Shown here piece after piece: positions 46,683 to 63,340 of a stretch of DNA of 64,000 nt. Origin of the DNA: Deltaproteobacteria bacterium (GTDB lineage: Bacteria > Myxococcota_A > Polyangia > Polyangiales > Houyiibacteriaceae); NCBI GenBank assembly GCA_004283055.1, contig SHLP01000007.1, positions 1-64,000 of the forward strand. Direction: 5' to 3'. The first letter of the stretch is position 1; each line of letters opens with the position of its first letter. Under the pieces are notes generated by a model. The model was given only the letters and a program-made list of their open reading frames with translations. It was not told where the DNA came from and did not search any database. The position numbers and the translations under genes were made by a program.

Positions 46683-48131
46683 GTGATTACAGCTAGTTAT
46701 GCGGCAGCGAAAGACTTGGACGACTTGTCATCACGTGACATAGTGTCAAAAGTGTCTGCCAGAGAGTCTCAAATGACCGATTCCACCGAGCTCTCGGTGC
46801 TCGTCGTCGATGACGAAGCGCCGAACGTCGACTCCCTGCGACGCATCTTCGAGCGCGAAGGGTTCGAGGTCCTCACGGCGACGAGCGGGAAGAAGGCCCT
46901 CGACCTCTGCCGACACCATCCGGTGAACGTGGTGGTGAGCGACCTCATGATGCCGGGAATGAACGGCATCGAGCTGGTCAAGGCTTTGAAGACGGTCGTG
47001 CCCGACGCCGAGGTCGTCCTGATGACCGCGTTTGGTACGGTCGAAAAGGCCGTCGAGGCCATGCGCGCCGGCGCCTACGACTTCGTCGAGAAGCCCTTGA
47101 AACGGCTCCAGATGGTCAAGACCGTTCGCAAGGCGGCGGAGCGCCAGCAGCTCGTCGTCGAAAACAAGGATCTTCGACAACAGCTCTCGCAGCTCAGCGA
47201 TCGGAGCATCGTAGGCTCTGCGGCGTCACTTCGAAGCGCTCTCGAGATCGCTACCCAAGCGGCACCATCTTCGGCGAACGTGTTGATCCTCGGGGAGAGC
47301 GGCACCGGCAAGGAGTTGCTCGCACGTCACATTCACGAGCGGAGTGGAAGAAAACAGTTCGTGGGCGTCAACCTCTCCGCCCTCCCGGAGACGATCGTCG
47401 AGTCGGAGCTTTTCGGCCACGAAAAGGGAGCCTTCACCGGTGCCGTGGCGCGACGCGGCGGTCGCATTGCGGAAGCTCAGGGCGGCACGCTGTTTCTCGA
47501 CGAGATCGGCGAGCTGTCCGCGGCAGTCCAGGTAAAGCTGCTCCGCGTTCTTCAGGAAGGCGAATACCAACCGGTCGGCGGACAGACCAAGAAGGCTGAC
47601 TTCCGCTTGATTGCGGCGACCAATCGTGACCTTCACGCTGCGGTGGAAGCGGGGGAGTTTCGCGAAGACCTGTACTACCGACTCAACGTCATCGCGCTCA
47701 CCAGCCCTCCGCTCCGCGCACGACGCGACGACATCCCAGTGCTGACCGAGCACTTCGTAGCAACCTATTGTGCGAAGAACGGGAAGGAGCCTTTGGCGGT
47801 GGATCGCGACGCGCTTCAACAGCTGGTCGCTTACGACTGGCCCGGCAACGTTCGGGAGCTCCAAAATGTGATTGAACGCGCTGTCGTTCTGAACAAGAGC
47901 GGCGTCATCAAGCTGGCCGACCTTCCCGACCCGGTCGCCCGCGCCGAACCGCACTTCGACGCGTTTACATTCCCCGTCGGAACGGCGCTGAGTGAAGTCG
48001 AACGACGGGTGATTCACGGCACGCTGAAGCACACTTCGGGAGACAAGCAGCTCGCGGCGCAGCTCCTCGGCATTTCTGCGCGAACGATCTATCGCAAGCT
48101 GGGGGCCGAGAAGGGCGACGAGGCCGCCTGA
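46683..48131 (+). CDS. NtrC-type sigma-54 response regulator
   Basis: A 482-residue transcription activator. Receiver domain (about 37-150) with phospho-acceptor Asp87 in VVVSDLMMPGMNG. AAA+ domain (about 172-400) with Walker A GESGTGKE (204-211), the sigma-54 contact GAFTGA (249-254) and Walker B FLDEIGE (271-277). A Fis-type HTH ends it (about 452-473, GDKQLAAQLLGISARTIYRKL in the helix region). It activates sigma-54 RNA polymerase once phosphorylated; no kinase is seen nearby. GTG 46683 has a GGAG; ATG 46773 is an alternative without 30 residues. It lies directly upstream of the T2SS operon, whose promoter has the matching type. Confidence 0.93.
   Translation: MITASYAAAKDLDDLSSRDIVSKVSARESQMTDSTELSVLVVDDEAPNVDSLRRIFEREGFEVLTATSGKKALDLCRHHPVNVVVSDLMMPGMNGIELVKALKTVVPDAEVVLMTAFGTVEKAVEAMRAGAYDFVEKPLKRLQMVKTVRKAAERQQLVVENKDLRQQLSQLSDRSIVGSAASLRSALEIATQAAPSSANVLILGESGTGKELLARHIHERSGRKQFVGVNLSALPETIVESELFGHEKGAFTGAVARRGGRIAEAQGGTLFLDEIGELSAAVQVKLLRVLQEGEYQPVGGQTKKADFRLIAATNRDLHAAVEAGEFREDLYYRLNVIALTSPPLRARRDDIPVLTEHFVATYCAKNGKEPLAVDRDALQQLVAYDWPGNVRELQNVIERAVVLNKSGVIKLADLPDPVARAEPHFDAFTFPVGTALSEVERRVIHGTLKHTSGDKQLAAQLLGISARTIYRKLGAEKGDEAA
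46726..46756. promoter_or_regulatory. TGTCA-motif cluster near the regulator start
   Basis: TGTCA-N5-TGACA (46726-46740) is an inverted repeat, followed by TGTCA (46744-46748) and TGTC (46753-46756). It lies inside the first codons if GTG 46683 is used, or just upstream if ATG 46773 is used. The same core recurs at 48151-48163. Confidence 0.4.
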
Positions 48132-48286: not shown

Positions 48287-49264
48287 GTGGCAACTCCACG
48301 ACAAAGACGCGTCTCGGCTGTGATCGTGCTCGCAACGCTGGCCCTCTGTGCTTTGTTCCTGGCGCAGGGGACGACCAGGGTCTTGGCGGCGGAATTGCTC
48401 GCGCCGAATGCGGTTGCCCCGAAGCCACCCGGCAAACGTTTCACGGCAAGCTCGCCGAGTTTTCTTCGCAGGCGCAAACCCGAAGCGATCCTCCGGCGAA
48501 ACATATTCGATTCGGCCCGCGGCGACCTCACGGCCGAGCCGCTTCCCGAGATCCCGCTCGACGAAGATGGGCAGCCGGTCGCGGACTGGGATCCGAACCG
48601 ACCGCCGCCGAAGTGCACGGGCAAGCTGCGACTCGTCGGCTCCGTGGTGAGCCCGGTGGCCCCGGACTGGTCGTTCGCCGCAATCGCTGGCTCGAGCGAC
48701 GGAAAGACCATGCTCTACCGCGAGGGCTCCGAGGTGGACGGTTCCCGAGTGATGGCCGTTCACTCTTCGAGTGTCGTGATGACCGGCTCAACCGGAGTTT
48801 GCCAACTACTGATGTTCGAAGAGGAAGAGACGACGGCAGCGAGGGCGCCGGTCGCGAAAAAGCCCGCAGCTTCCAAGCCTGCAGATGCCAGAAGCGCTGG
48901 CCTCAGCGCAGAAGAGATGACCGACGGAATCGAAAAGATTAGCGATACCAAGTACAACATTCAACGAAGCTTGGTCGACAAAGTCTTGGCGAATCAGGGG
49001 AGTCTGATGAAGTCCGCGCGTGTGATTCCGCACGAGGAGAACGGACGCGTCGTCGGCGTCAAGCTCTACGGCATCCGGCGCAACAGCCTGCTCGGGCGTC
49101 TTGGAGTTCGAAACGGAGACATGCTGCGAACCATCAACGGGTTCGACATGACGAGCCCTGACACCGCGCTCGAAGCGTATTCTCGATTGCGAAGCGCCGA
49201 CAAGCTCACGCTCGCGATCAAACGTCAGAACAAAGAAACCACCATTGACTACAACATCGAATGA
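48287..49264 (+). CDS. gspC: Type II secretion protein GspC
   Basis: A 325-residue inner-membrane protein with one N-terminal helix (about 10-28), a homology-region domain (about 70-160) containing KLRLVGSVV and a C-terminal PDZ-type domain (about 243-320) with LYGIRRNSLLGRLGVRNGD. GspC links the inner-membrane platform to the secretin GspD. An Ala/Lys-rich linker (about 188-205) joins the parts. First gene of the T2SS operon, with a GTG start and almost no leader if the sigma-54 promoter is used. Confidence 0.9.
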   Translation: MATPRQRRVSAVIVLATLALCALFLAQGTTRVLAAELLAPNAVAPKPPGKRFTASSPSFLRRRKPEAILRRNIFDSARGDLTAEPLPEIPLDEDGQPVADWDPNRPPPKCTGKLRLVGSVVSPVAPDWSFAAIAGSSDGKTMLYREGSEVDGSRVMAVHSSSVVMTGSTGVCQLLMFEEEETTAARAPVAKKPAASKPADARSAGLSAEEMTDGIEKISDTKYNIQRSLVDKVLANQGSLMKSARVIPHEENGRVVGVKLYGIRRNSLLGRLGVRNGDMLRTINGFDMTSPDTALEAYSRLRSADKLTLAIKRQNKETTIDYNIE

Positions 49265-49299: not shown

Positions 49300-52101
49300 G
49301 TGACTTCTAGAAATCAGCTCATTTGCTTGCTCGTCGGCGCGCTCCTTCTGAGCACGGGACACGGCGCGGTGGCCCAACAGAACGAAGCGAAGCCAGCAAA
49401 GCCGCCCGCGCGGATTCCCTCTCCACCCGTCCCGCTGCGACCGGCGCCGCCGAAGGCGGATGCGACCGCCTCTCCCGGACCTGGCCCGAGGGCAAAGCCT
49501 GAGCCCGCCGCCGTAGAAGAGCCAGAGCTCGAAAACGAGCTGCCGCAGTTCGAGACCGGGGTCGAGTTCAAGGCCATGTCGCCGCGCACCAGGGTGACGT
49601 TCAACCTCGAGAACGCCGAGCTCCCGGACCTGGTCCGCCTGATCTCGAACATGACGGGGCGTCGCTTCATTCTTCCGACCAAGCTGCGCGCGATCAAAGC
49701 AACCGTGTTTGCACCGACCAAGGTGACGGTCTCGGAGGCGTATCAGGCCTTCTTGTCGGTTCTCGAGGTCAACGGCTTCACGATCGTGCCGGCGGGTCGA
49801 TATTTGAAGATCGTGGAAGCTCAGCAGATCGAACGCCAAACGGTCCCGATGTACGAGGACGGCAGCGCTGTTCCTGCAACCGACCGCTACATCACTCGAA
49901 TTCATCACCTGGATCACCTCTCGGCCGAAGATGTCACGACGCTGCTCGCACGCTTCGCTTCCCGGACAGCAAACATCACGTCCTACGCGCCCACCAACAT
50001 GCTGATCCTCACCGACACTGGCGCCCAAATACGCCGCATGCTCCGTCTGATTGCGGCGATCGACCTACCCCGAAGCGGAACCCAGACCTGGATCGAACCA
50101 ATTCACTTCGCAAATGCGCCAGACCTCGGCGCGAGGTTGCTGGAGATCTTCGCCGCCGACACCGAAACGGCGGCCCCGAAAAAGGCCACCGCGCGATCCA
50201 CAGCGAAGAAGAAGAACGAACCACCGGCCGTGCTCGGTGCCTCTTCGGCCGGGCCGACAATCCGGAACATCATCGCCGACGAGCGGACGAACTCTCTCAT
50301 CATCATCGCAACGGAACGCGCGTACCTGCGTATTCTCGAGATGATCCGGCAGCTCGATGTCGCGCTCGAGGGCGAGGGGCGCATCCACGTTCACTACGTT
50401 CAGCACGGCGCTGCGACCGACATCGCCGCGGCGCTAACGGCGCTCGTAGGCGCCTCTTCGGGCGGCCGACCGACACCTGCGGCCAGAGGCGCTGCACAGA
50501 GGGGCGCGGCGGCACCAAAAACCACGGCGTCGCTCTTCGAGGGGCAGATCGGGGTCACCGCATACGAGCAGTCGAACGCGCTGCTGATCACGGCCTCTCT
50601 TCACGACTATACGGCGCTCAAAAAAGTGATCGAACGTCTCGACGCGCCGCGCAAGCAGGTGTTCATCGAGGCGGTCGTCATGGAGCTCGGCATCGAGCGA
50701 TCGTCGGACCTCGGCTTTGCGTTCCACGGGGGCGCGGGCGACTTCCCGACCGACGGCTCTCTCTCGCTCTTCGGGTTCAACGCGCCGTCGTCTATCGACA
50801 TCACCCAAAACGATCTCAGCGGCTTGGCTCTTGGCGTTCGTGGACCGACCATCGAGAACTCGCAGCAGCTCGTCGGTTTCTCGGTGCCAGGGTTTGGCGT
50901 GGTGGTGACCGCGCTCGCGAAGTCTGGCGACGCGGACGTGCTCTCGACACCGCACATCATCGCGATCGACAACACCGAAGCTGAAATCAGCGTCGGAGAG
51001 AACATCCCTCTGCAGACCAATGGCGTGGCGCCGGGGACCTTCGCCGGTGCGGGCAGCCTCGGGGCCTTGGCCCAAGCGTCCGCCGGTGGGCAAGATCTAG
51101 GCGGTCTCGCAGGGCTCGCGGGGGGTCTTGGAAGCGTCGCCCGTCAGGACGTCGGCACCACGATTCGAGTCGTGCCGCACATCAACGAGAACAACGAAGT
51201 CCGGCTCGAGATCGAGGAGGAGATCTCCGAGCAGGGCGCCACCTCGGGTACGCTGGGAGTCGTCTCGATCAACCGCCGTACCGCGCGAACGGAGGTCATG
51301 GTTCGGGACCAGCAGACGATCGTCATTGGCGGTCTGATGCGTGACGCGATTCAGAACAGCGAAGACAAGGTTCCCGTTCTCGGCGACATCCCGATTTTGG
51401 GCGCGCTCTTCCGCAAAACCAGCAAGCAGAAGCGCAAGACGAACCTGCTTCTCATTTTGACGCCTTACATCATTCGCGACCCGGGTGACCTTCGGGAGAT
51501 CTTCGAGCGGAAGATGCAAGAGCGGCAGCAGATGATCGATCGCTACTTCGTATTCGGTGAGGACAAGTTCGAGCCGTACATCGACTACACCCGCACGCGC
51601 GGTCTCGTCGCCGAGATCGTAAACGAGATCGACGGCGTCGAAGAGGAAATTAAGCTGGCGCAGGCTGCGGAGCTCGAGCCACCGCCGGACCACGTGCCAC
51701 GCGCACCTATCGGCCCTTACAGCGCGGCCTTGGCCGTCGAGGACGACACCTACGTGATTGGGCCGAACGGGGTAGAACCGCAGGAGGGGAGCAAGCCGAA
51801 TCTCATCGAGTCGATCCCAGCGACCGCAGCGGACGAGCAGGAAGGAGGCGAGGCCCCCCCTCCCCCGATTGAACGACCGCACGGGGCAGAGCCAGAATCT
51901 CCGCCCGAACCGACGCTTCCCGACAAAGCGGAGCAGGCGACCGACGTCGTCGGCAGCGAAGAGATCATCGAGCCCGGCGAGCCTCCGTCCGAACCGGACG
52001 GCGCGACCCAAGGTGCCGAACCTGCAGACGGCTCGAGCGAAGCGGAGCCCGAGGACGGCGCGGAGCCAAGCGGCGAAGAAACGAAGAGCATCCCGCAATG
52101 A
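49300..52101 (+). CDS. gspD: Type II secretion secretin GspD
   Basis: A 933-residue outer-membrane secretin. Signal peptide (1-25, AVA before QQNEA), a Pro/Ala linker, N0-N3 domains, then the secretin core that ends with VPVLGDIPILGALFR (about 690-704). About 190 residues follow, mostly acidic with many Pro, Glu and Ser; most secretins end soon after the core, with at most a short S domain. The tail may bind a pilotin or the cell wall. GTG start 36 bp after gspC. Confidence 0.93.
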   Translation: MTSRNQLICLLVGALLLSTGHGAVAQQNEAKPAKPPARIPSPPVPLRPAPPKADATASPGPGPRAKPEPAAVEEPELENELPQFETGVEFKAMSPRTRVTFNLENAELPDLVRLISNMTGRRFILPTKLRAIKATVFAPTKVTVSEAYQAFLSVLEVNGFTIVPAGRYLKIVEAQQIERQTVPMYEDGSAVPATDRYITRIHHLDHLSAEDVTTLLARFASRTANITSYAPTNMLILTDTGAQIRRMLRLIAAIDLPRSGTQTWIEPIHFANAPDLGARLLEIFAADTETAAPKKATARSTAKKKNEPPAVLGASSAGPTIRNIIADERTNSLIIIATERAYLRILEMIRQLDVALEGEGRIHVHYVQHGAATDIAAALTALVGASSGGRPTPAARGAAQRGAAAPKTTASLFEGQIGVTAYEQSNALLITASLHDYTALKKVIERLDAPRKQVFIEAVVMELGIERSSDLGFAFHGGAGDFPTDGSLSLFGFNAPSSIDITQNDLSGLALGVRGPTIENSQQLVGFSVPGFGVVVTALAKSGDADVLSTPHIIAIDNTEAEISVGENIPLQTNGVAPGTFAGAGSLGALAQASAGGQDLGGLAGLAGGLGSVARQDVGTTIRVVPHINENNEVRLEIEEEISEQGATSGTLGVVSINRRTARTEVMVRDQQTIVIGGLMRDAIQNSEDKVPVLGDIPILGALFRKTSKQKRKTNLLLILTPYIIRDPGDLREIFERKMQERQQMIDRYFVFGEDKFEPYIDYTRTRGLVAEIVNEIDGVEEEIKLAQAAELEPPPDHVPRAPIGPYSAALAVEDDTYVIGPNGVEPQEGSKPNLIESIPATAADEQEGGEAPPPPIERPHGAEPESPPEPTLPDKAEQATDVVGSEEIIEPGEPPSEPDGATQGAEPADGSSEAEPEDGAEPSGEETKSIPQ

Positions 52102-53876
52102 GCCTCGAACAGCGTTACATTGGTGAGATCCTGGTTCGGCGCGGCGCGCTCGAGCCCGACAAGCTCGAGGCTGCACTGCAGACGGCGTCGGATCGATCTG
52201 TAGATCTCACCGACCTCTTGGTTGCAACGCACGCCGTCGAAGAGGTGAAGCTCGTGCGCGCCTTGGCGGACGAAGTCGGCATGGAGTTCGTGGAAAAGCT
52301 CGCTACGGAGCTGATCCCCGAGGAACTGGTCGATGCGGTCCCGATTAATTTCGCGCGCCAGAATCACGTTCTGCCCCTGACGCAATCCGATGACAGCGTG
52401 CGGGTTGCAATTGCCAATCCGCTCGACCCCTTTCCCATCGACGACCTGCGGATTCTCCTCGGCAAGACAATCATTCCGGTCGCTGCGTCGGAAGAGAGCA
52501 TCGACGACGCGATCAACCGGGTCTATGAGCGAAAAGACGAAACAGCCCTCGCCGAAGCGAAGGAAGGCGAAGAGGTCGAAGAGCTGCGCGACCTGATCGA
52601 CATGACCGACGAGGCGCCGGTGATTCGCTGGGTCAACAACCTCTTTTACACAGCGGTCAAAGAGCGAGCATCCGACATTCACATCGAGCCAACGGATGAA
52701 AAGGTCATCGTTCGGTATCGTGTCGATGGACGCCTCATTCCACGCAAGGAAGCGAATCGCGGCTTTCTTTCGTCGATCGTGAGTCGCGTGAAGATCGAGG
52801 CAGGCCTCAACATCGCGGAACGGCGCCTGCCCCAAGACGGGCGCATCACCAAGAAGATCGCGGGCAAGGTGGTCGACGTCCGTGTGTCGACGATTCCGAC
52901 GGCGAAGGGCGAGCGCGTCGTCATGCGTCTCCTCGACAAGGAACAGGTTCTGCTGAATCTCATCGACCTCGGCTTTGCACGCCGCGAGCTCGACCAACTC
53001 GAGGGCCTGATTCGGCGCCCCAACGGCATCATCTTGGTGACCGGGCCCACCGGCTCCGGCAAGACGACCACGCTGTACGCCTGTCTGAACACGATCAACA
53101 CGCCCGAGAAGAACATCCTGACTGCCGAGGATCCGGTCGAATACGAGCTTCGCGGCATTGGGCAGATGCAGGTTCAACCCAAAATTGGTCTGACCTTTGC
53201 GTCAGGCATGAGGAGCTTTCTCCGTCAGGACCCGGACGTGATCATGGTTGGCGAGATCCGCGACCACGAAACCGCTGAAATCGCAATTCACGCGTCGCTG
53301 ACTGGTCACCTCGTGCTCTCGACACTGCACACCAACGACGCGCCGAGCGCCATCACGCGTCTAGTCGACATGGACATACAAGCCTACCAGCTGTCCTCGT
53401 CGATTCTCGCGGTCCTCGCGCAGCGGCTCGTTCGCCGGCTTTGCGACCAATGCAAGAGCCCGTACACACCGACCAATCAACATCTACTCGAGCTCGGCAT
53501 TGACGCTGCCATGGCCCAAGAGAAGCTCGTGGAGCTCAAGAGACTCGCTGCGACCACCGTGATCGGAAACAGCAGTCCTCCGATCCTGCCCCCTGCCGCG
53601 GCTACGGACTCGGGCCAGCTGACGTTTTATCACCACCGCGGCTGCGACGAGTGCAGCAACACCGGCTATCGAGGTCGAATCGGCATCTTCGAGCTGATGA
53701 TGATCGACGAGCCGGTACGCCGCGAAATCTTGAACAACAGTGATTCAAAGACGATTCAGCGGGTTGCACAACAGCAGGGGATGCGGCTGCTTCGCGAAGA
53801 CGGCGCGCGCCAAGTCGTCGCAGGCGTGACGAGCGTCGAAGAGGTCCTCGCTGCGACCCAGGCCGCAGAGGTCTGA
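52098..53876 (+). CDS. gspE: Type II secretion ATPase GspE
   Basis: A 592-residue hexameric ATPase. N-terminal GspL-binding domain, then Walker A GPTGSGKTTTLYA, the Asp box, Walker B VGEIRDHETAEIA and the His box HTNDAPSAITRL. The zinc site typical of GspE is present, with CDQC and CDEC separated by about 65 residues. It powers pseudopilus assembly from the cytoplasm. The ATG overlaps the gspD stop (ATGA). Confidence 0.95.
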   Translation: MSLEQRYIGEILVRRGALEPDKLEAALQTASDRSVDLTDLLVATHAVEEVKLVRALADEVGMEFVEKLATELIPEELVDAVPINFARQNHVLPLTQSDDSVRVAIANPLDPFPIDDLRILLGKTIIPVAASEESIDDAINRVYERKDETALAEAKEGEEVEELRDLIDMTDEAPVIRWVNNLFYTAVKERASDIHIEPTDEKVIVRYRVDGRLIPRKEANRGFLSSIVSRVKIEAGLNIAERRLPQDGRITKKIAGKVVDVRVSTIPTAKGERVVMRLLDKEQVLLNLIDLGFARRELDQLEGLIRRPNGIILVTGPTGSGKTTTLYACLNTINTPEKNILTAEDPVEYELRGIGQMQVQPKIGLTFASGMRSFLRQDPDVIMVGEIRDHETAEIAIHASLTGHLVLSTLHTNDAPSAITRLVDMDIQAYQLSSSILAVLAQRLVRRLCDQCKSPYTPTNQHLLELGIDAAMAQEKLVELKRLAATTVIGNSSPPILPPAAATDSGQLTFYHHRGCDECSNTGYRGRIGIFELMMIDEPVRREILNNSDSKTIQRVAQQQGMRLLREDGARQVVAGVTSVEEVLAATQAAEV

Positions 53877-55112: not shown

Positions 55113-55535
55113 ATGACTCGACGATCCAAAAGAGAACGCGTTTCGTTGCCATGGGAAAGCCGTGGCGGCCGCTGGCGCAATGCGCTCAGCAAGACGCGCT
55201 GGCAAGCGCTACTCGGGATGTTGCTGCTGACAGTGCTAGCCGTGGGCTTTACGCGGTACGCAAGCCGACGAGTGCGGGTGCGCGATACGCTCGTTGCGGT
55301 GGCGCAGGTGAAACAGGCGATCGATCAATTCCGAGCGGACGTGGGTCGCTGCCCGAGATCGGAGACGGAGCTGCTTCACCCACCGCTGTCGCAGAAGCAC
55401 TACCTGCATTCGATGCCAAAGGATGGCTGGGGGAGGCCCCTGACGATTCGCTGTCCAGGCCATTTCGAAGACGAAGCCGACGTAATTTCGGCGGGCCCGA
55501 GCGGCTCGCTCTCGAAGGACGACAACATTCAATGA
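55113..55535 (+). CDS. GspG-like protein without a prepilin cleavage site
   Basis: A 140-residue protein. Residues about 60-140 match the globular part of the major pseudopilin: QIDQFRADVGRCP-type ordering, then MPKDGWGRPLTI, ADVISAGPSGSLSKDDNI, which in GspG read LPKDPWG and the calcium-site loop. The N-terminus, however, is a basic 30-residue stretch and a membrane helix (about 31-47, LGMLLLTVLAVGF) with no G-FTLIE motif. The prepilin peptidase should not process it. It may be a membrane-anchored GspG-like factor or a decayed copy. It begins nine bases after gspF and its TGA overlaps the next ATG. Confidence 0.82.
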   Translation: MTRRSKRERVSLPWESRGGRWRNALSKTRWQALLGMLLLTVLAVGFTRYASRRVRVRDTLVAVAQVKQAIDQFRADVGRCPRSETELLHPPLSQKHYLHSMPKDGWGRPLTIRCPGHFEDEADVISAGPSGSLSKDDNIQ

Positions 55536-55552
55536 AGGGAACGGGAGGCTCC

Positions 55553-55948
55553 ATGCCCAACACGACTGACACCCGCGCACGACGAAGACTGGCCCGCCGG
55601 AGGCGCCGAGACGGCTTCACGCTGATCGAGATCATGATCGTCATCACGATCTTCGCGATGATGGCAGGTGGCGTAGCGGTGGCACTGCTCCCGCAGCTCG
55701 AGAAGGCGCGGCTCAAGACCACCAAAACGGACGCTCAAGGATTGCGTTCGGCTGTGATGCTCTACGTCGCGGACAACCCCAGAGGCTGCCCGACGGTCGA
55801 AGACTTGGTGAACGAGCGATATCTCGACGGAACCCGTCGGACGACGGACGCTTGGGACACGCCATTTCAGATCACCTGCGAAGACGGTGACATCGCGGTC
55901 GTTTCGGCGGGGCCGGACCTCCAATTCAACACCGAGGACGACATTTAG
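55553..55948 (+). CDS. gspG: Major pseudopilin GspG
   Basis: A 131-residue pseudopilin. The prepilin peptidase site is RRRDG before FTLIEIMIVITIF, after a 22-residue, very basic leader. The globular part holds NPRGCPTVEDL and the calcium-loop end SAGPDLQFNTEDDI. I favour the ATG at 55553, with GGGAGG four bases upstream; an ATG at 55532 overlaps the previous stop and is possible. Pseudopilin subunits form the piston that pushes substrates through GspD. Confidence 0.9.
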   Translation: MPNTTDTRARRRLARRRRRDGFTLIEIMIVITIFAMMAGGVAVALLPQLEKARLKTTKTDAQGLRSAVMLYVADNPRGCPTVEDLVNERYLDGTRRTTDAWDTPFQITCEDGDIAVVSAGPDLQFNTEDDI

Positions 55949-55954
55949 GCGATC

Positions 55955-56644
55955 ATGGTCGGACGCGTCCCACCCCGAACGAGCCGAGGATTCACCCTCA
56001 TCGAGGTGATCGTCGTGATCGCAATCATTGCGGTCGTGGTCACTGGAGCGACGTTCGGTCTAGGCGCGATCACACGGACCCGGCTCCGTTCGTCTGCTTT
56101 CAAAGTGATGAGCGCTGCCCGATTCGCCTACAACCGATCCCTCACCCAGGGAACGACCACGCGACTCCGCTTCGACTTCGACAAAGATACGATGGCTATC
56201 GAGGAGACCCTGACGCCCGTCACGCTCGCAACGACCGAACAGCTCGAGGATGAGGATGGTCAGGCAGTCGACCCCTGGGACCTCGCCAGGGCCAGGCTCG
56301 AGCAGCCGCTGACACCCATAAAGCCCACCTCGCCGTTTCAACCGATTGCCAACAAGAACGGCAAGGTCATCGAGCGCTACACCGCCAAACCGGTCGGCGA
56401 GGCGGTTTCGGTCCACGCCTTGATCACGCCGCACGAAACAGAGACTCGAACCGATGGGGAGGGCTCCGTTTACTTCTTCCCCGGTGGACTGACCGAGCAC
56501 GCCGTCATTCAGCTGAGCGACGCCAGTGACACGGTCTACAGCATCGAGATTCATCCGCTCACCGGGAATGCGCGGATTCACAACTTCGCCTACGAGCCGC
56601 TGGACGAGCTCGACGACGAGGGAGAGGTCGAGGATTCACTATGA
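55955..56644 (+). CDS. gspH: Minor pseudopilin GspH
   Basis: A 229-residue pseudopilin with cleavage site TSRG before FTLIEVIVVIAII. Behind the helix lies a beta-rich domain with a long acidic stretch (about 85-150). The C-terminal GSVYFFPGGLTEHAVIQL fits GspH. The protein is longer than usual GspH (about 150-190). Starts six bases after gspG. Confidence 0.85.
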   Translation: MVGRVPPRTSRGFTLIEVIVVIAIIAVVVTGATFGLGAITRTRLRSSAFKVMSAARFAYNRSLTQGTTTRLRFDFDKDTMAIEETLTPVTLATTEQLEDEDGQAVDPWDLARARLEQPLTPIKPTSPFQPIANKNGKVIERYTAKPVGEAVSVHALITPHETETRTDGEGSVYFFPGGLTEHAVIQLSDASDTVYSIEIHPLTGNARIHNFAYEPLDELDDEGEVEDSL

Positions 56645-57261
56645 CTCGAGACGGCTTCACCTTGTTGGAAGTGATGATTGCCGTGGCGATCCTCGGCCTA
56701 TCGCTCACGGCCATTTTCTCGAGTGAGGTGGGTGCAGCGAACATCGCCGCGCGCGCGCGCCGGCAGAACGTCGCTGTGACCCTCGCGCGCTGCAAGATGG
56801 GCGAGATCGAGGAGGTCATCGGAATCGAAGGCTTGCCCGCACTCGAGAAGAAAGACACGGATTCCTGCTGCGAGCATGCGCCCGTCGAAGGGTACGAGTG
56901 TGAGTGGATCGTCGAGCGAATCATCCTGCCGGAGTTCGGCGCCGGCGACGACGAAAGCGAAGAGGACGAAGGTGGCGATGAAACTACGCCCAAAGAGATA
57001 GTCAACGCCGCGGTTGATGAAGTCACCGAGTCCGGTGGCCCGACGGAGCAGGTAATTGCCGGGGGGGCAGGGAACCTGGCGATGCTCGCATTGCAAATCG
57101 GCTTTCCCATCTTGAAACCATTCCTCGAGGAGCAAGTTCGAAGAGCCACAGTGACGGTGCGATGGACTGAAGGGTCCAAGCAACGCGGCTTCGACGTCAC
57201 TCAGTACCTCGTTTCCGCGCAACCAGCGCGGACCGACGACCAGCTAGAGGAGGAAGAGTGA
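56641..57261 (+). CDS. gspI: Minor pseudopilin GspI with a long insert
   Basis: A 206-residue pseudopilin; cleavage site TRDG before FTLLEVMIAVAILG. GspI normally has about 125 residues. Here an insert (about 98-165) contains an acidic run (DDESEEDEGGDE) and a second hydrophobic segment (LAMLALQIGFPIL), before the final beta strands VTVRWTEG. Cys-Cys and another Cys lie at about 76-87. Overlaps gspH by ATGA. Confidence 0.82.
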   Translation: MTRDGFTLLEVMIAVAILGLSLTAIFSSEVGAANIAARARRQNVAVTLARCKMGEIEEVIGIEGLPALEKKDTDSCCEHAPVEGYECEWIVERIILPEFGAGDDESEEDEGGDETTPKEIVNAAVDEVTESGGPTEQVIAGGAGNLAMLALQIGFPILKPFLEEQVRRATVTVRWTEGSKQRGFDVTQYLVSAQPARTDDQLEEEE

Positions 57262-57944
57262 GGAAATCTGCCTTCACCTTGCTCGAAATCATCCTGGCGG
57301 TGTCCGTGCTCGCCTTGGTGGGAACCATGATCTACGGCGGTTTCGCTCAAACTGCGCTCAACAAGGCACGTGTCGAAAAAGACGTCGACCAGTCTCGCGT
57401 CGTACACATGGCACTCGAGCGTATTGCGCGTGAGCTGACGATGGCCTTCGTCTCGACTCACACCAATCCCTCGCTCGATCTCCGAGTCGTAGAGACGGCT
57501 TTCATCGGAAGGGACCGTGGTAAGGAGGACCGAATCGATTTCACTTCGTTCTCGCATCGGCGTCTCTACCGAAACGCGCGCGAGTCCGATCAGAACGAGC
57601 TGAGCTACTTCGTGACCCAAGATCCGGACGACTCGGACGTGCAGGTCCTTGCACGAAGAGAGCAAAACCGGATTGACGATGACCCGCGGAGGGGAGGAAA
57701 ATCACAGATACTCGTTCAGGACGTCGAAGAGTTCAACGTCGAGTACTTCGATCCCTTGCTCAGCGAGTGGGTCCAGACCTGGGACACCGAGGACGTTCTC
57801 TCACAGCCAAATCGACTCCCGACACAGGTCCGGATCCGCTTGGCCGTCAAGCACCCGGGTCGCCGCGGCAAGACCCAGGTGTTCGGCACCAGGGTGACGA
57901 TTCCACTCAACTACGCTCTCAATCACGCGAACTACAACCCATGA
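57258..57944 (+). CDS. gspJ: Minor pseudopilin GspJ
   Basis: A 228-residue pseudopilin. Leader MRKSA before FTLLEIILAVSVLAL; the residue before the cleavage is Ala rather than Gly, which prepilin peptidases tolerate. The remainder is beta-rich with RIDFTSFSHRRLYR and LVQDVEEFNVEYFD, as in GspJ. GTG start overlaps the gspI stop (GTGA). Confidence 0.87.
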   Translation: MRKSAFTLLEIILAVSVLALVGTMIYGGFAQTALNKARVEKDVDQSRVVHMALERIARELTMAFVSTHTNPSLDLRVVETAFIGRDRGKEDRIDFTSFSHRRLYRNARESDQNELSYFVTQDPDDSDVQVLARREQNRIDDDPRRGGKSQILVQDVEEFNVEYFDPLLSEWVQTWDTEDVLSQPNRLPTQVRIRLAVKHPGRRGKTQVFGTRVTIPLNYALNHANYNP

Positions 57945-59293
57945 GCCACCGAAGAACGACATCGCACCCCAAGCGCTCGGAACAAGGCGTCGCGCTGATC
58001 ATGGCGATTGCCACGGTCGCGATTCTATCGGTGATGCTCGCGGACATGCACGAGAAGACGGGGACTGCGTTTGCCGTCTCGACGTCGCAACGGGATTCGC
58101 TTCAGGCCGAATACATGGCCAAGAGCGCGACCAACCTGACTCGGCTCTTAATCGCAAAAGAGCCCGAGGTGCGACGCTTCGTCGACCCGCTCTACCGGGC
58201 CGCGACGGGTCGCTCCGCCCCTCAGTTGCCGGTCTGGAACTTCGTCAACGAGCTGATCGCCCCGTTCTGTACCCCTGAAGACCAGCGAGACACCTTGATG
58301 GAGCTCGGAGTCGATTTCGGCGACACAGTCGGATTCGAAAACCTCCCCGGTACATGCCAGGTCCGCGCCGTCAGTGAGAACGGCAAGCTGAACGTCAACG
58401 ACCCGCTGTTCCTCGACGGGGAGCAAGCGCGTAACGGCGTGGCAACGCAGCTCTTTACTCTCACGGGTGGGCAACTGCCCGAAAGCCCGTACGATGCGCT
58501 CTTCACGTCGGAAGACGAGACCGGCACCTTGACCACGCGGCTCGATCTCATCACAGCGGTGATTGACTGGTGGGATCGCGACATTCAACGGACCGACTTC
58601 GACCCAGGTGCCGGCGTGACGAGGACCGGCGGCACCGGGACGGAAGACGATTCACTTTATCAGCTGAGCGAGAATCCCTACCGAAACAAAAACGCCCCGT
58701 TCGACTCGCTCCAAGAGTTGCGCCTCGTGCGAGGCTTCAACGACGATTTCTGGGCCACCTTCGTCGAGCCGATTCCGAACGACCCTGCATCCCGGCTCAT
58801 GACGATCTACGCATCGGGCCTCGTCAATGTGAACGAAGCCAGCCCCCAAGTTCTGCTAGGGAGGATCTGCTCGTTCGCCCCCGAAGTGAGCCTTTGCGTC
58901 GATCCGCTCGAAAGCATCAAATTCGTCCAAATTCTCACCACGATCCGTCAGCTCATCCCCATCCCCCTCTTCAGCCGGCCAACGGACCTCATCAACTTCG
59001 TCGAAGGCAAGGGGACAGAGAAAGATCTGTACGGGATGCTCACGGGTTTCTTGGGTCCAGAGAGCGAGCTGATTTTCACACCCATCGAGATCCCAACCGA
59101 GCAACGAACGCCGCTTGCCCGATCCTTCGCAACGTCGGCTCAGATCTTCACCATCGAAGCGATCGCGCTGGTTGGGCATTCCCAGATCCGGATCGAGTCG
59201 GTCGTCAACTTCCACTCCCGCTGGGTGCCACCCCCGCCGAATACGGGGCGCATGCCAGGATTGGGCGTGTTTCACTACTATCGGATGAATTGA
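57941..59293 (+). CDS. gspK: Minor pseudopilin GspK
   Basis: A 450-residue protein, the large tip pseudopilin. Leader MSHRRTTSHPKRSEQG before VALIMAIATVAILS; the usual Glu at position 5 is Met, which is typical of GspK. The big globular domain has helix-hairpin-helix-like parts, for example GKLNVNDPLF and ASGLVNVNEASPQVL. GspK caps the pseudopilus with GspI and GspJ. The ATG overlaps the gspJ stop (ATGA); the open frame upstream lies in gspJ and is not used. Confidence 0.9.
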   Translation: MSHRRTTSHPKRSEQGVALIMAIATVAILSVMLADMHEKTGTAFAVSTSQRDSLQAEYMAKSATNLTRLLIAKEPEVRRFVDPLYRAATGRSAPQLPVWNFVNELIAPFCTPEDQRDTLMELGVDFGDTVGFENLPGTCQVRAVSENGKLNVNDPLFLDGEQARNGVATQLFTLTGGQLPESPYDALFTSEDETGTLTTRLDLITAVIDWWDRDIQRTDFDPGAGVTRTGGTGTEDDSLYQLSENPYRNKNAPFDSLQELRLVRGFNDDFWATFVEPIPNDPASRLMTIYASGLVNVNEASPQVLLGRICSFAPEVSLCVDPLESIKFVQILTTIRQLIPIPLFSRPTDLINFVEGKGTEKDLYGMLTGFLGPESELIFTPIEIPTEQRTPLARSFATSAQIFTIEAIALVGHSQIRIESVVNFHSRWVPPPPNTGRMPGLGVFHYYRMN

Positions 59294-59294
59294 G

Positions 59295-60767
59295 ATGTCG
59301 TTGGTTTTGGGATTAGAGGTCACAGGCCGGGTGGTTCGCGGCGCGTTCTTACGGACGGCGCTGCGCGGATGGGAAATGGAGCAGTATGCAGAAGCCCCGC
59401 TTCCCTACTCCGAGGAATCGGACTCGGACCCAGGCGTGCTGCAGGCCGCGATCACGCAAGTCCTCTCGGCGGGCGCCCGGGCACCCGATCGCATCATAGC
59501 GTCGCTCAACGGGGAAGCGGCCTCGCTGAGGCTGATCGACCTGCCGGCCGGCGTCGAGAAGAAGGCCGGAGAAGTCTTGCCCGGTGAGCTCGGCTCGGTT
59601 CTCCCTTTCGATATCGAAGATGCGATCGTCGACTATCAGGTGGTCGGTCGCGGCGAGTCGACCATTCAGCTCATGGCCGTAGCCGCGCCTCGGCGAAACG
59701 TAGCGGCCCGGCTCAATCAGCTCCGGTCGGCGGGCGTAGATCCCACAGAGCTGGCCGTTGGCGCGGCTGCCTTCGACGGCCTCGGCGCGCTGCTGGGTGA
59801 GCCGCTCGCGAACAAGACCGTCATCGTGGTCGATCTGGGACCCACCAACACCGACTTCGCGGCACTGACCAACGGCGGTTGCACCTTCGCGCGCACGCTT
59901 TCGGGAGGGATGAATCTGGTTGAATCGGGCCGACGCGCCGAGCTTGGTGCCGCGTTGCAACGCACGCTGGCCAGCTACCGGGCGCAGCGCTCCGAAGAAC
60001 CGTCCATGGTGCTGCTCTCAGGGGAGACGGCGCCTATGGAAAGCGCGCGGAGCTGGCTGACCGAGCAACTCGGACTCCCGTGCGGCGTCGCTCCGCTCCC
60101 CGAGGCCCCGGGCGCGGACGAAGAAACGCGGCCAAAGTTCGCAAAGGCGGCGGCACTCGCATCGCGGGCCATCTCGCGTCGGAAGCAACTCAACCTGCGC
60201 CGAGGTGAGTTTGCGTCAGCTGCCGCGGCGAGCGAGCTTCGGACGCACGCTCGCCTAATCGCCGCTTGCTTTGCTGCAATCCTACTCTCCTTCGGCGTTT
60301 CGCTGCTCGCCCAATACAGGGTAGCGAGTGCAGAGCAGGAACGGCTCACCGAAACGCTGGCGGAAGTCAGCAAGGACCTGCTCGGAGAGGAGACGCGGAG
60401 CGCGCTTCATGCGCGAGAGCTGCTGACCGCCGGAGCTCGCATCGACGACCCATTGCCTCGTTTCGATGCGTACGACGTTCTCGAGGCGATTTCCGAAAGC
60501 ATTCCAGCCGACATCCAACACGATACCCGTCGACTTCTGATCGAGATCGACGATGACGGAGACAACGGTCGCTTCGAGATCCAGGGGACCGTGGGCTCCA
60601 TCGCCGATCGAGACAGGCTGTTGGGTGACCTCCAGGCACATGCTTGTTTTGCCGAAGCTGAAAAGGGCTCCATCTCGAATGCGGTCGGCGACCGAAAGGA
60701 TTACAAACTGGTGGTCAAGGTCGACTGCGACGAGGCGGCTGCCCGTCCCAAGAACAAGGAGAACTAA
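59295..60767 (+). CDS. gspL: Type II secretion protein GspL
   Basis: A 490-residue inner-membrane protein. The cytoplasmic part (to about 310) is actin-like, with GLEVTGRVVRGAF and VVDLGPTNTDFAAL, similar to PilM-type folds. A membrane helix (about 317-336) and a periplasmic ferredoxin-like domain follow. GspL anchors GspE to the membrane with GspM and GspF. It starts two bases after gspK. Confidence 0.88.
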   Translation: MSLVLGLEVTGRVVRGAFLRTALRGWEMEQYAEAPLPYSEESDSDPGVLQAAITQVLSAGARAPDRIIASLNGEAASLRLIDLPAGVEKKAGEVLPGELGSVLPFDIEDAIVDYQVVGRGESTIQLMAVAAPRRNVAARLNQLRSAGVDPTELAVGAAAFDGLGALLGEPLANKTVIVVDLGPTNTDFAALTNGGCTFARTLSGGMNLVESGRRAELGAALQRTLASYRAQRSEEPSMVLLSGETAPMESARSWLTEQLGLPCGVAPLPEAPGADEETRPKFAKAAALASRAISRRKQLNLRRGEFASAAAASELRTHARLIAACFAAILLSFGVSLLAQYRVASAEQERLTETLAEVSKDLLGEETRSALHARELLTAGARIDDPLPRFDAYDVLEAISESIPADIQHDTRRLLIEIDDDGDNGRFEIQGTVGSIADRDRLLGDLQAHACFAEAEKGSISNAVGDRKDYKLVVKVDCDEAAARPKNKEN

Positions 60768-60768
60768 G

Positions 60769-61332
60769 GTGGCCTTTGGAGACGCGCTGGACAACGTACG
60801 CAGCTGGGCGGATGCGCTGAGCGGGCGCGAACGTCGACTGATTGCCATCATGGCCATCGTTTTCGTCGCGATTCTGATCGTCCTGCCGATGTACGTCGCA
60901 ATCGCGAGCATTTCGGACATCAAGACGGAGAACGACGAAATTGGACTGGTGCTGCAGGACATCCGCCGCTCCGAAGCCCGTCTACGACAGGAGAAAGCCG
61001 ATCGGGTCGCGGTCGAGAAGCTGTATGACCGAAAGGCGCCTTCGCTCGGCGGCTTTCTCGAGGAGCGTGCCCAGCAGTACGGCGTGACGGGTCTCGGAAT
61101 CACAGATCAGCCAAACCTCGACATGGGCCAGTACAGCCGGCGTTCGGTCCGCGTCTCTTTGCCGGTGGTCGAGCTCCGACCCTTGATCGAGATGCTCGCG
61201 GATATCGAGAACAGCTCCTATCCTGTCGCCATCGAGCGGATTCAAATGACCGGCGGCCGCATGCGAACGGGATATACGGTCAAGTTGGGTGTCAACGCCT
61301 ACGACCGCGAAACCGGTTCGGTGGAGCAGTAG
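60769..61332 (+). CDS. gspM: Type II secretion protein GspM
   Basis: A 187-residue protein: short cytoplasmic start, a membrane helix (about 24-45), a coiled-coil stretch (DEIGLVLQDIRRSEARLRQE) and a small periplasmic domain. This is the GspM layout, and it follows gspL, its partner, directly. The GTG at 60769 has AAGGAG upstream and lies two bases after the gspL stop. Confidence 0.85.
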   Translation: MAFGDALDNVRSWADALSGRERRLIAIMAIVFVAILIVLPMYVAIASISDIKTENDEIGLVLQDIRRSEARLRQEKADRVAVEKLYDRKAPSLGGFLEERAQQYGVTGLGITDQPNLDMGQYSRRSVRVSLPVVELRPLIEMLADIENSSYPVAIERIQMTGGRMRTGYTVKLGVNAYDRETGSVEQ

Positions 61333-62353: not shown

Positions 62354-63340
62354 ATGACTGGAAAAGATTCAGAAGAATCGGACGAGATGGACGATCTCCA
62401 GGAGGCCGAGATTTCAGAGGATGCGCCACGCCTCGACGAAGAGGGGCCCGACGCGCTGGCAGTGCCCAGGTCGGCACTCTCCCGCCGTGACCCATTGGCG
62501 GTGTACATGCGCGACGTGCAGCGATACCCGCTTCTTTCGAAGGAAGAAGAGCACGAGCTCGCGGTGCGCTTCCTCGAAGAAGAAGACCTCGAAGCCGCGA
62601 AGCGCCTGGTCACATCGAACCTCCGGCTGGTCGTCAAGATCGCCTACGACTATCGACAGGCTTACAAAAACATTCTCGACCTGGTTCAGGAAGGCAACAT
62701 CGGTCTGATGCAGGCCGTCAAGAAGTACGACCCGTACAAAGGCGTGAAGCTCTCGAGTTACGCCGCTTGGTGGATTCGTGCATACATCCTACGCTACATT
62801 TTGAACAACCATCGCCTCGTAAAGGTCGGCACCACGCAGGCCCAGCGAAAGCTGTTCTTCAATCTGCAAAAAGAAAAGGCACGCCTCTCTGCAATGGGTA
62901 TCGAGCCAACCGCTGAAGTCATTGCCGAACGCCTGAACGTCCCAAAGCGGGACGTGGTCTCCATGGACATGCGGTTGGCAGCCGGAGATGCGTCCCTCGA
63001 TGCACCCGTCGGGATGGGAGAAGGTCGTACCGTGGCGCGCGTGGAGATCCTTCCATCCGAACAGCGCCGCGCGGACGATAACTTGGCGGATGCCGAAATT
63101 GGCGATCAGTTCTCCTCCAAGATCCACGAGTTTGGAAAGTCCCTCGAGGGCAAGGAGAAGCAGATCTTCGACGACCGCTTGGTTGCGGAAGACCCGAAAA
63201 CCCTGCAGGCGCTTGGTGACGAGTTTGGCGTTAGCCGCGAGCGTGTCCGGCAGATTGAGAAGCGTCTGCTCGAGAAGCTGAAAGCATATTTGCGTAGCAA
63301 GCTGGGCGATACCGTCGTCGAAGTCTACGAATCTCCCTAA
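62354..63340 (+). CDS. rpoH: RpoH-type (sigma-32) sigma factor
   Basis: A 328-residue sigma-70 family factor. Region 2 shows DLVQEGNIGLMQAVKKYDP and WWIRAYILRYIL; the RpoH box is QRKLFFNLQ (164-172), which sets it apart from other group 2/3 factors. Region 4 HTH is about 285-315, with GVSRERVRQIEKRLL. An acidic N-terminal tail (about 1-40) is longer than in E. coli RpoH. Myxococci carry several RpoH-like factors with developmental as well as heat-shock roles, so the stimulus cannot be assumed. Confidence 0.9.
   Translation: MTGKDSEESDEMDDLQEAEISEDAPRLDEEGPDALAVPRSALSRRDPLAVYMRDVQRYPLLSKEEEHELAVRFLEEEDLEAAKRLVTSNLRLVVKIAYDYRQAYKNILDLVQEGNIGLMQAVKKYDPYKGVKLSSYAAWWIRAYILRYILNNHRLVKVGTTQAQRKLFFNLQKEKARLSAMGIEPTAEVIAERLNVPKRDVVSMDMRLAAGDASLDAPVGMGEGRTVARVEILPSEQRRADDNLADAEIGDQFSSKIHEFGKSLEGKEKQIFDDRLVAEDPKTLQALGDEFGVSRERVRQIEKRLLEKLKAYLRSKLGDTVVEVYESP

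What the first reader, a model, noticed from the sequence alone, without database searches (positions are those of the whole stretch)
55113..55535. GspG-like protein lacking the prepilin signal inside a gsp operon
This gene sits between gspF and gspG and is coupled to both. Its C-terminal half has the GspG fold signature, including the calcium-loop ending, but its N-terminus is a plain basic tail and membrane helix without G-FTLIE. It is intact and in frame, so it looks maintained. It could be a fixed, non-polymerising GspG-like piece, for example an anchor or cap at the base of the pseudopilus.
Basis: partly seen in the sequence, partly recalled or inferred. Interest (0 to 1): 0.68.

Follow-up and report, generated by a model that had tools for sequence, protein, structure and literature searches.

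The report
Tethered GspG-like subunit of secretion machine
A whole order of myxobacteria carries, inside its type II protein-secretion operon, a conserved copy of the filament subunit's head fixed to the membrane by a new anchor so that it probably cannot enter the filament; it looks like an undescribed fixed part of the machine.

Summary
ORF 55113-55535 (140 aa, "X") lies between gspF and gspG. Its head is a GspG domain (Pfam T2SSG 5e-10; its family profile matches solved GspG chains at 3.5e-13), and it has no prepilin signal. It is not a decaying duplicate: 78 of 82 well-sequenced genomes of the order carry it, in the same place (E-F-X-G-H-I-J), under purifying selection (dN/dS 0.08-0.21 in the closest pairs). 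A relaxed prepilin test is positive in 0 of 76 X and 74 of 74 neighbouring GspG.

Two details need correcting. The N-terminal tail is not plain: it carries a conserved [L/F]PWE motif (46 of 51). The calcium loop keeps its shape but lost a side-chain ligand (D125) in 50 of 51. X keeps the hairpin length of ordinary GspG, while the polymerising GspG beside it is shortened. One relative (G027) has gspF-gspG without X.

Elsewhere in the phylum, prepilin-less GspG heads with other anchors arose several times independently. The best mechanism, inferred and untested, is a fixed GspG head at the pseudopilus base, held by its tail to the cytoplasmic side of the assembly platform, in parallel to the archaellin-like stators ArlF/ArlG.

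The parts
55113..55535 (+). X: membrane-tethered GspG-like protein, 140 aa, no prepilin signal
55113..55205 (+). N-terminal cytosolic tail of X (residues 1-31), basic, conserved
   Evidence: tail median identity 0.77 in the genus against 0.53 for the TM segment; topology inferred
55146..55157 (+). LPWE motif (residues 12-15) in the tail
   Evidence: P, W and E each in 46 of 51 orthologues; loose form in 69 of 76; a degenerate DNA pattern for the motif has this single match in the window's genome
55206..55262 (+). transmembrane segment (about residues 32-50), no prepilin motif before it
   Evidence: Kyte-Doolittle mean 1.75; relaxed prepilin test 0 of 76 X, 74 of 74 G
55275..55520 (+). GspG head domain (Pfam T2SSG, residues 55-136), with conserved C80 and C114 and DxWG
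55494..55526 (+). calcium-loop equivalent GPSGSLSKDDN (residues 128-138); ligands D117 and D125 of GspG replaced by S and N
   Evidence: ligands from PMC3396595
53880..55103 (+). gspF, assembly-platform protein upstream
   Evidence: TIGR02120 470.7 bits, over cut-off
55532..55948 (+). gspG, true major pseudopilin with GFTLIE; start overlaps the stop of X
55955..56644 (+). gspH-like minor pseudopilin
56641..57261 (+). gspI-like minor pseudopilin
57258..57944 (+). gspJ-like minor pseudopilin
   Evidence: PF11612 1e-8
52098..53876 (+). gspE ATPase
   Evidence: TIGR02533 over cut-off
49300..52101 (+). gspD secretin
48287..49264 (+). probable gspC (weak C-terminal PDZ match)
   Evidence: PDZ_2 E 0.003, below cut-off, at residues 271-321; position before gspD
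57767..59293 (+). gspK-like (open frame from 57767 overlaps gspJ; true start unsettled)
   Evidence: NF037980 3.4e-17, match from residue 72 on
59295..60767 (+). gspL/pilM-like cytoplasmic platform protein
60553..61332 (+). gspM-like (open frame overlaps gspL; true start unsettled)
   Evidence: T2SSM 7e-5, below cut-off

Best explanation
X is a GspG duplicate that was turned, before the radiation of this order, from a filament subunit into a fixed, single-pass inner-membrane protein. The tail (about 31 residues, with the LPWE motif) stays in the cytoplasm, a plain transmembrane helix anchors the protein, and a GspG head faces the periplasm. Shown: head homology, loss of the prepilin signal, a conserved tail, loss of a calcium ligand, fixed place between gspF and gspG, purifying selection. 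Inferred: X cannot be extracted into the pseudopilus, so its head stands at the base next to GspF, where it touches the incoming or lowest GspG subunits, while the LPWE tail binds a cytoplasmic partner of the platform (GspE, GspL or the GspF cytosolic domain). It would steady the base of the filament, or guide or limit GspG insertion. The head keeps the ordinary hairpin length that the polymerising GspG of the same genomes has lost, so the two copies appear to have divided the ancestral roles.
For: Head: T2SSG 51/51 members; family profile against solved GspG 3.5e-13; hhalign against the neighbouring GspG family 2e-21. No prepilin: N_methyl 0/51 X against 42/50 G; relaxed test 0/76 against 74/74. 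Maintained: 78 of 82 genomes of the order, synteny, dN/dS 0.08-0.21 in the closest pairs. Fixed by a cytosolic tail: PWE near-invariant although the TM letters drift. No filament role expected: Glu5 and the free N-terminus are absent (their use in assembly: PMC10191384), and calcium ligand D125 is lost in 50 of 51. Division of roles: the segment between DxW and SxG is 19 residues (median) in X and in single-copy GspG of other lineages, 15 in GspG beside X; those shortened GspG form a starred clade. Recurrence: other prepilin-less, anchored GspG heads arose independently in the phylum. Precedent: ArlF/ArlG resemble archaellins, lack the signal peptide and act as stators (PMC8978795).
Against: No experiment and no usable structure model: AlphaFold2 with the four sequences allowed gave pLDDT 55, and the true GspG gave 54 at the same depth, so it is uninformative. 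G027, a 99% complete relative, has the operon without X, so X is not essential there. Seven of 76 orthologues lack the PWE motif. The partner of the tail is unknown. Topology is from hydropathy and charge only.
Confidence: 0.42

Rival explanations
1. X is a substrate- or secretin-facing adaptor: the tethered GspG head recruits exoproteins, or docks to GspC/GspD, without acting on the filament.
For: The head keeps the ordinary CPG hairpin that GspG beside it lost; GspC has the same topology (short tail, TM, periplasmic domain; background knowledge).
Against: The strongest new conservation is in the cytosolic tail, which a purely periplasmic adaptor does not need; the gene is coupled to gspF and gspG rather than to gspC/gspD.
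Confidence: 0.2
2. X is a regulator of pseudopilus length or GspG supply: a non-polymerising head that competes for GspG docking and so brakes assembly.
For: Tandem arrangement with gspG; loss of the polymerisation signal with retention of the head; similar duplicates recur in the phylum.
Against: A brake does not explain the near-invariant cytosolic PWE motif; GspG beside X has diverged in the head, which weakens direct head competition.
Confidence: 0.2
3. Hidden processed form: X is cut after the TM segment by signal peptidase I and acts as a soluble periplasmic GspG head, or is cut in a non-canonical way and enters the filament as a minor pseudopilin.
For: Small residues after the TM segment in some orthologues (sequences); ArlG is processed independently of the prepilin peptidase (PMC8978795).
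Against: A discarded signal peptide would not keep a near-invariant PWE tail; no G/A/S-x4-E plus hydrophobic stretch in any of 76 orthologues.
Confidence: 0.12
4. X is a decaying or neutral duplicate of gspG.
For: One loss (G027); some young copies elsewhere in the phylum have high dN/dS (0.4-0.6).
Against: dN/dS 0.08-0.21 in the closest pairs, no stops, 78 of 82 genomes, fixed position.
Confidence: 0.02

Closest known systems
GspG / PulG / XcpT major pseudopilin (TIGR01710, PF08334)
   Same: Head domain, DxWG core, calcium-loop outline, operon position next to gspF
   Different: No class III signal, no Glu5, 31-residue conserved cytosolic tail, calcium side-chain ligands replaced; 35.9 bits against the TIGR01710 cut-off of 88.85
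ArlF / ArlG, periplasmic stators of the archaellum (PMC8978795)
   Same: Similar to the filament subunit but without its signal peptide, serving as fixed parts; same type IV filament superfamily
   Different: Archaeal, archaellin fold, ArlG itself forms a filament and is processed; no sequence relation to X was tested
GspK, minor pseudopilin that caps the tip
   Same: A pseudopilin without Glu5 at one end of the filament (PMC10191384 speaks of a tip cap lacking Glu5; that it is GspK is background knowledge)
   Different: GspK is a processed prepilin with a large inserted domain; the operon has its own gspK
GspC / GspL / GspM, single-pass assembly-platform proteins
   Same: Cytosolic N-terminus, one TM helix, periplasmic domain
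   Different: Unrelated periplasmic domains; all three appear to be encoded separately in this operon
Mitochondrial GspG of protists (PMC8134430)
   Same: GspG paralogues in a reduced T2SS without GspO
   Different: They keep the processing site features and Glu5

Membership tests
GspG major pseudopilin | T2SSG head domain | tested here: met
   51 of 51 members match PF08334; PDB GspG 3.5e-13
GspG major pseudopilin | class III (prepilin) signal G-F/M-TLxE and Glu5 | tested here: not met
   N_methyl 0 of 51; relaxed test 0 of 76 against 74 of 74
GspG major pseudopilin | calcium site with D117 and D125 side chains | tested here: not met
   X has S and N; family 20/51 and 1/51, GspG 50/50 and 48/50
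GspG major pseudopilin | curated equivalog score | tested here: not met
   35.9 against cut-off 88.85; the true GspG here is below it too (46.4), so weak evidence
GspG major pseudopilin | polymerises into the pseudopilus | not testable with these tools
   needs experiment
Fixed assembly-platform subunit of T2SS (GspC/F/L/M-like role) | cytosolic N-terminus, single TM, periplasmic domain | tested here: inconclusive
   hydropathy and charge only
Fixed assembly-platform subunit of T2SS (GspC/F/L/M-like role) | encoded in the gsp operon at a conserved place | tested here: met
Fixed assembly-platform subunit of T2SS (GspC/F/L/M-like role) | binds GspF, GspE, GspG or GspL | not testable with these tools
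   needs co-purification or crosslinking
ArlF/ArlG-like stator (works like) | relative of the filament subunit without its signal peptide, retained as a fixed part | tested here: inconclusive
   first half met, fixed role inferred only

The most novel reading that the evidence does not exclude
Type II secretion systems of Myxococcota use a class of tethered GspG heads as fixed base or stator parts of the pseudopilus. X is its old, near-universal form in one order, and the same solution arose several times elsewhere in the phylum by duplication of gspG followed by replacement of the N-terminal helix with a plain TM helix or a lipoprotein anchor. The T2SS would then have a counterpart of the archaellum stator ArlF/ArlG.
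Probability: 0.3. Interest if true: 0.8.

Novelty: new variant of a known kind. Interest (0 to 1): 0.6.

Why it matters
How the base of the pseudopilus is held and how GspG subunits are fed in at GspF are open questions of type II secretion. A natural, conserved GspG head that lacks the polymerisation signal but is kept beside GspF gives a direct handle: it may mark the docking surface on the platform, and its short conserved tail should lead to a cytoplasmic partner. It would also show that filament subunits can be recruited as fixed machine parts in bacteria, as in the archaellum. In the papers searched here (open-licence PubMed Central only) I found no description of such a protein.

Tried and rejected
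Decaying duplicate: rejected by dN/dS, distribution and synteny. Hidden prepilin motif in X: none in 76 orthologues. LPWE as a general sorting tag: a degenerate pattern matches only this gene in the window's genome (the pattern also constrains two following codons, so it is not exhaustive). Single origin of all X, including families f17 and f18: not resolved (AU p 0.44, not rejected). Mitochondrial GspG as a precedent for loss of the signal: rejected, those keep the site. Literature searches for a described GspG paralogue without prepilin signal: none found.

Full report
What is there. The ORF 55113-55535 starts 9 nt after the stop of gspF and its stop overlaps the start of gspG. The surroundings are a gsp cluster: probable gspC, gspD, E, F, X, G, H, I, J, K, L, M. 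The head of X matches Pfam T2SSG at 5e-10, better than the gspG next to it, and there is no N_methyl match. The window's genome has only these two T2SSG domains. X and GspG are 25% identical over 113 residues.

It is conserved. A search of relatives found a match in 49 of 58 genomes. In a phylum-wide draw at 90% completeness or more, 78 of 82 genomes of the order have a match, by my count of the rows. In about 75 loci the order is E-F-X-G-H-I-J, with few loci cut by contig ends. Of the four order genomes without a match, G004 has no gspF-like hit at 1e-40, G047 only a PilC-like one (33% identity), and in G030 gspF is cut by a contig end. The fourth, G027, is a real absence: gspF is followed directly by gspG. 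In the genus, the closest unsaturated pairs give dN/dS of 0.08-0.21 (GspG 0.03-0.14, GspF 0.02-0.09; Nei-Gojobori, six closest pairs each).

It is not a prepilin. A relaxed test (G/A/S, four residues, E, then 14 hydrophobic residues) is negative in all 76 X and positive in all 74 neighbouring GspG. N_methyl matches 0 of 51 X and 42 of 50 GspG. T2SSG matches 51 of 51 X. A profile of X matches solved GspG chains at 3.5e-13, and the X and GspG profiles align at 2e-21.

The tail is not plain. Hydropathy gives one TM segment at about residues 32-50 in the window and a similar one in every orthologue. The tail before it is basic and holds P13-W14-E15, each in 46 of 51 sequences that are 25-76% identical to X. 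Within the genus the tail is 77% identical (median), the TM segment 53%, the head 82%. A DNA pattern for the motif occurs once in the whole genome, in this gene. A conserved tail speaks for a retained cytoplasmic contact and against a discarded signal peptide (inference). Seven of 76 orthologues lack the motif (families f17 and f18, genus g35, and G034).

The calcium loop is altered. In E. coli GspG 3G20 the reported side-chain contacts are D117, T122 and D125, and the two Asp belong to the motif (PMC3396595). At these two Asp positions X of the window has S130 and N138. Over the family D is kept in 20 of 51 and 1 of 51; in GspG beside X it is kept in 50 of 50 and 48 of 50. The one X with an intact G-x-D-G-x5-D-D is that of G225.

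Division of roles. In X and in single-copy GspG of other Myxococcota the segment between the DxW and SxG motifs is 19 residues (median) and usually holds a (C)PG motif. In GspG of genomes with X it is 15. On a tree of the heads (90 columns, 94 rows) the GspG of X-bearing genomes form one starred group (99/96), and the X of the order form separate rows outside it. This is one clade-level association, not a repeated one, and the tree has few columns. Whether the X-like genes of families f17 and f18 share the same origin is open (AU p 0.44).

The same thing happened elsewhere. In G019, G028, G265 and G188 an extra GspG head without prepilin motif stands near gspG; each is sister to its own genome's GspG on the tree, so these are four separate duplications. 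The heads are 66-91% identical to their own GspG, while the N-terminal 120 nt align at only 49-58%, and each carries a new hydrophobic segment. Further cases by inspection: G077, G193, G092, G220 with a TM-like segment; G068, G076 and G084, three species of one genus, where G-1 is kept but Glu5 is Pro; and lipobox-like anchors in G211, G069, G304 and perhaps G180 and G157. Selection on the young copies is mixed: dN/dS 0.05-0.6. Second copies with an intact prepilin motif also exist (G088, G139, G189, G270), so loss of the motif is common but not automatic. Origins of the cases found by inspection were not placed on the tree.

Mechanism. Prepilin cleavage and Glu5 serve assembly into the filament (PMC10191384). 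X has neither, and its charged tail should prevent extraction from the membrane (inference). With gspF on one side and gspG on the other, the simplest role is a fixed GspG head at the base. Tail binding to GspE, GspL or GspF is a proposal. The nearest known parallel is ArlF/ArlG of the archaellum, which resemble archaellins, lack their signal peptide and act as stators (PMC8978795). This is a likeness of role, not membership. AlphaFold2 could not help: X gave pLDDT 55 and the GspG control 54 at the same alignment depth.

Novelty. Known: GspG, its fold, its calcium site and its prepilin signal. New as far as searched: a conserved, prepilin-less, tail-bearing GspG paralogue as a regular part of the gsp operon in a whole order, and its repeated independent counterparts in the phylum. 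Only open-licence PubMed Central papers were searched, and the taxonomy is by group codes, with two relatives titled Myxococcales and one Polyangiaceae.

Noticed in passing
L121:3951-4349 (G019), L120:4243-4698 (G028), L122:3172-3609 (G265), L123:4726-5172 (G188): Lineage-specific duplicates of gspG whose head is 66-91% identical to the neighbouring GspG, but whose N-terminal helix is a different hydrophobic segment without prepilin motif.
   Followed up: partly
L134, L135, L136 (G076, G084, G068; one genus): A second GspG gene next to gspG in three species keeps G-1 but has Pro in place of Glu5 (GMVPVP for GMTLVE); dN/dS about 0.4-0.6.
   Followed up: partly
L138 (G211), L140 (G069), L148 (G304): T2SSG-domain proteins with lipobox-like N-termini (IAGC, LAGC, SGGC) instead of a prepilin signal, possibly GspG-head lipoproteins.
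   Followed up: no
L098 (G088): Two tandem gspG genes, both with intact prepilin motif.
   Followed up: no
L118 (G027): A same-family genome where gspF is followed directly by gspG: X was lost or removed.
   Followed up: partly
window 46683-48131 and 62354-63340: A sigma-54 response regulator upstream and a sigma-70 family factor downstream flank the gsp cluster.
   Followed up: no
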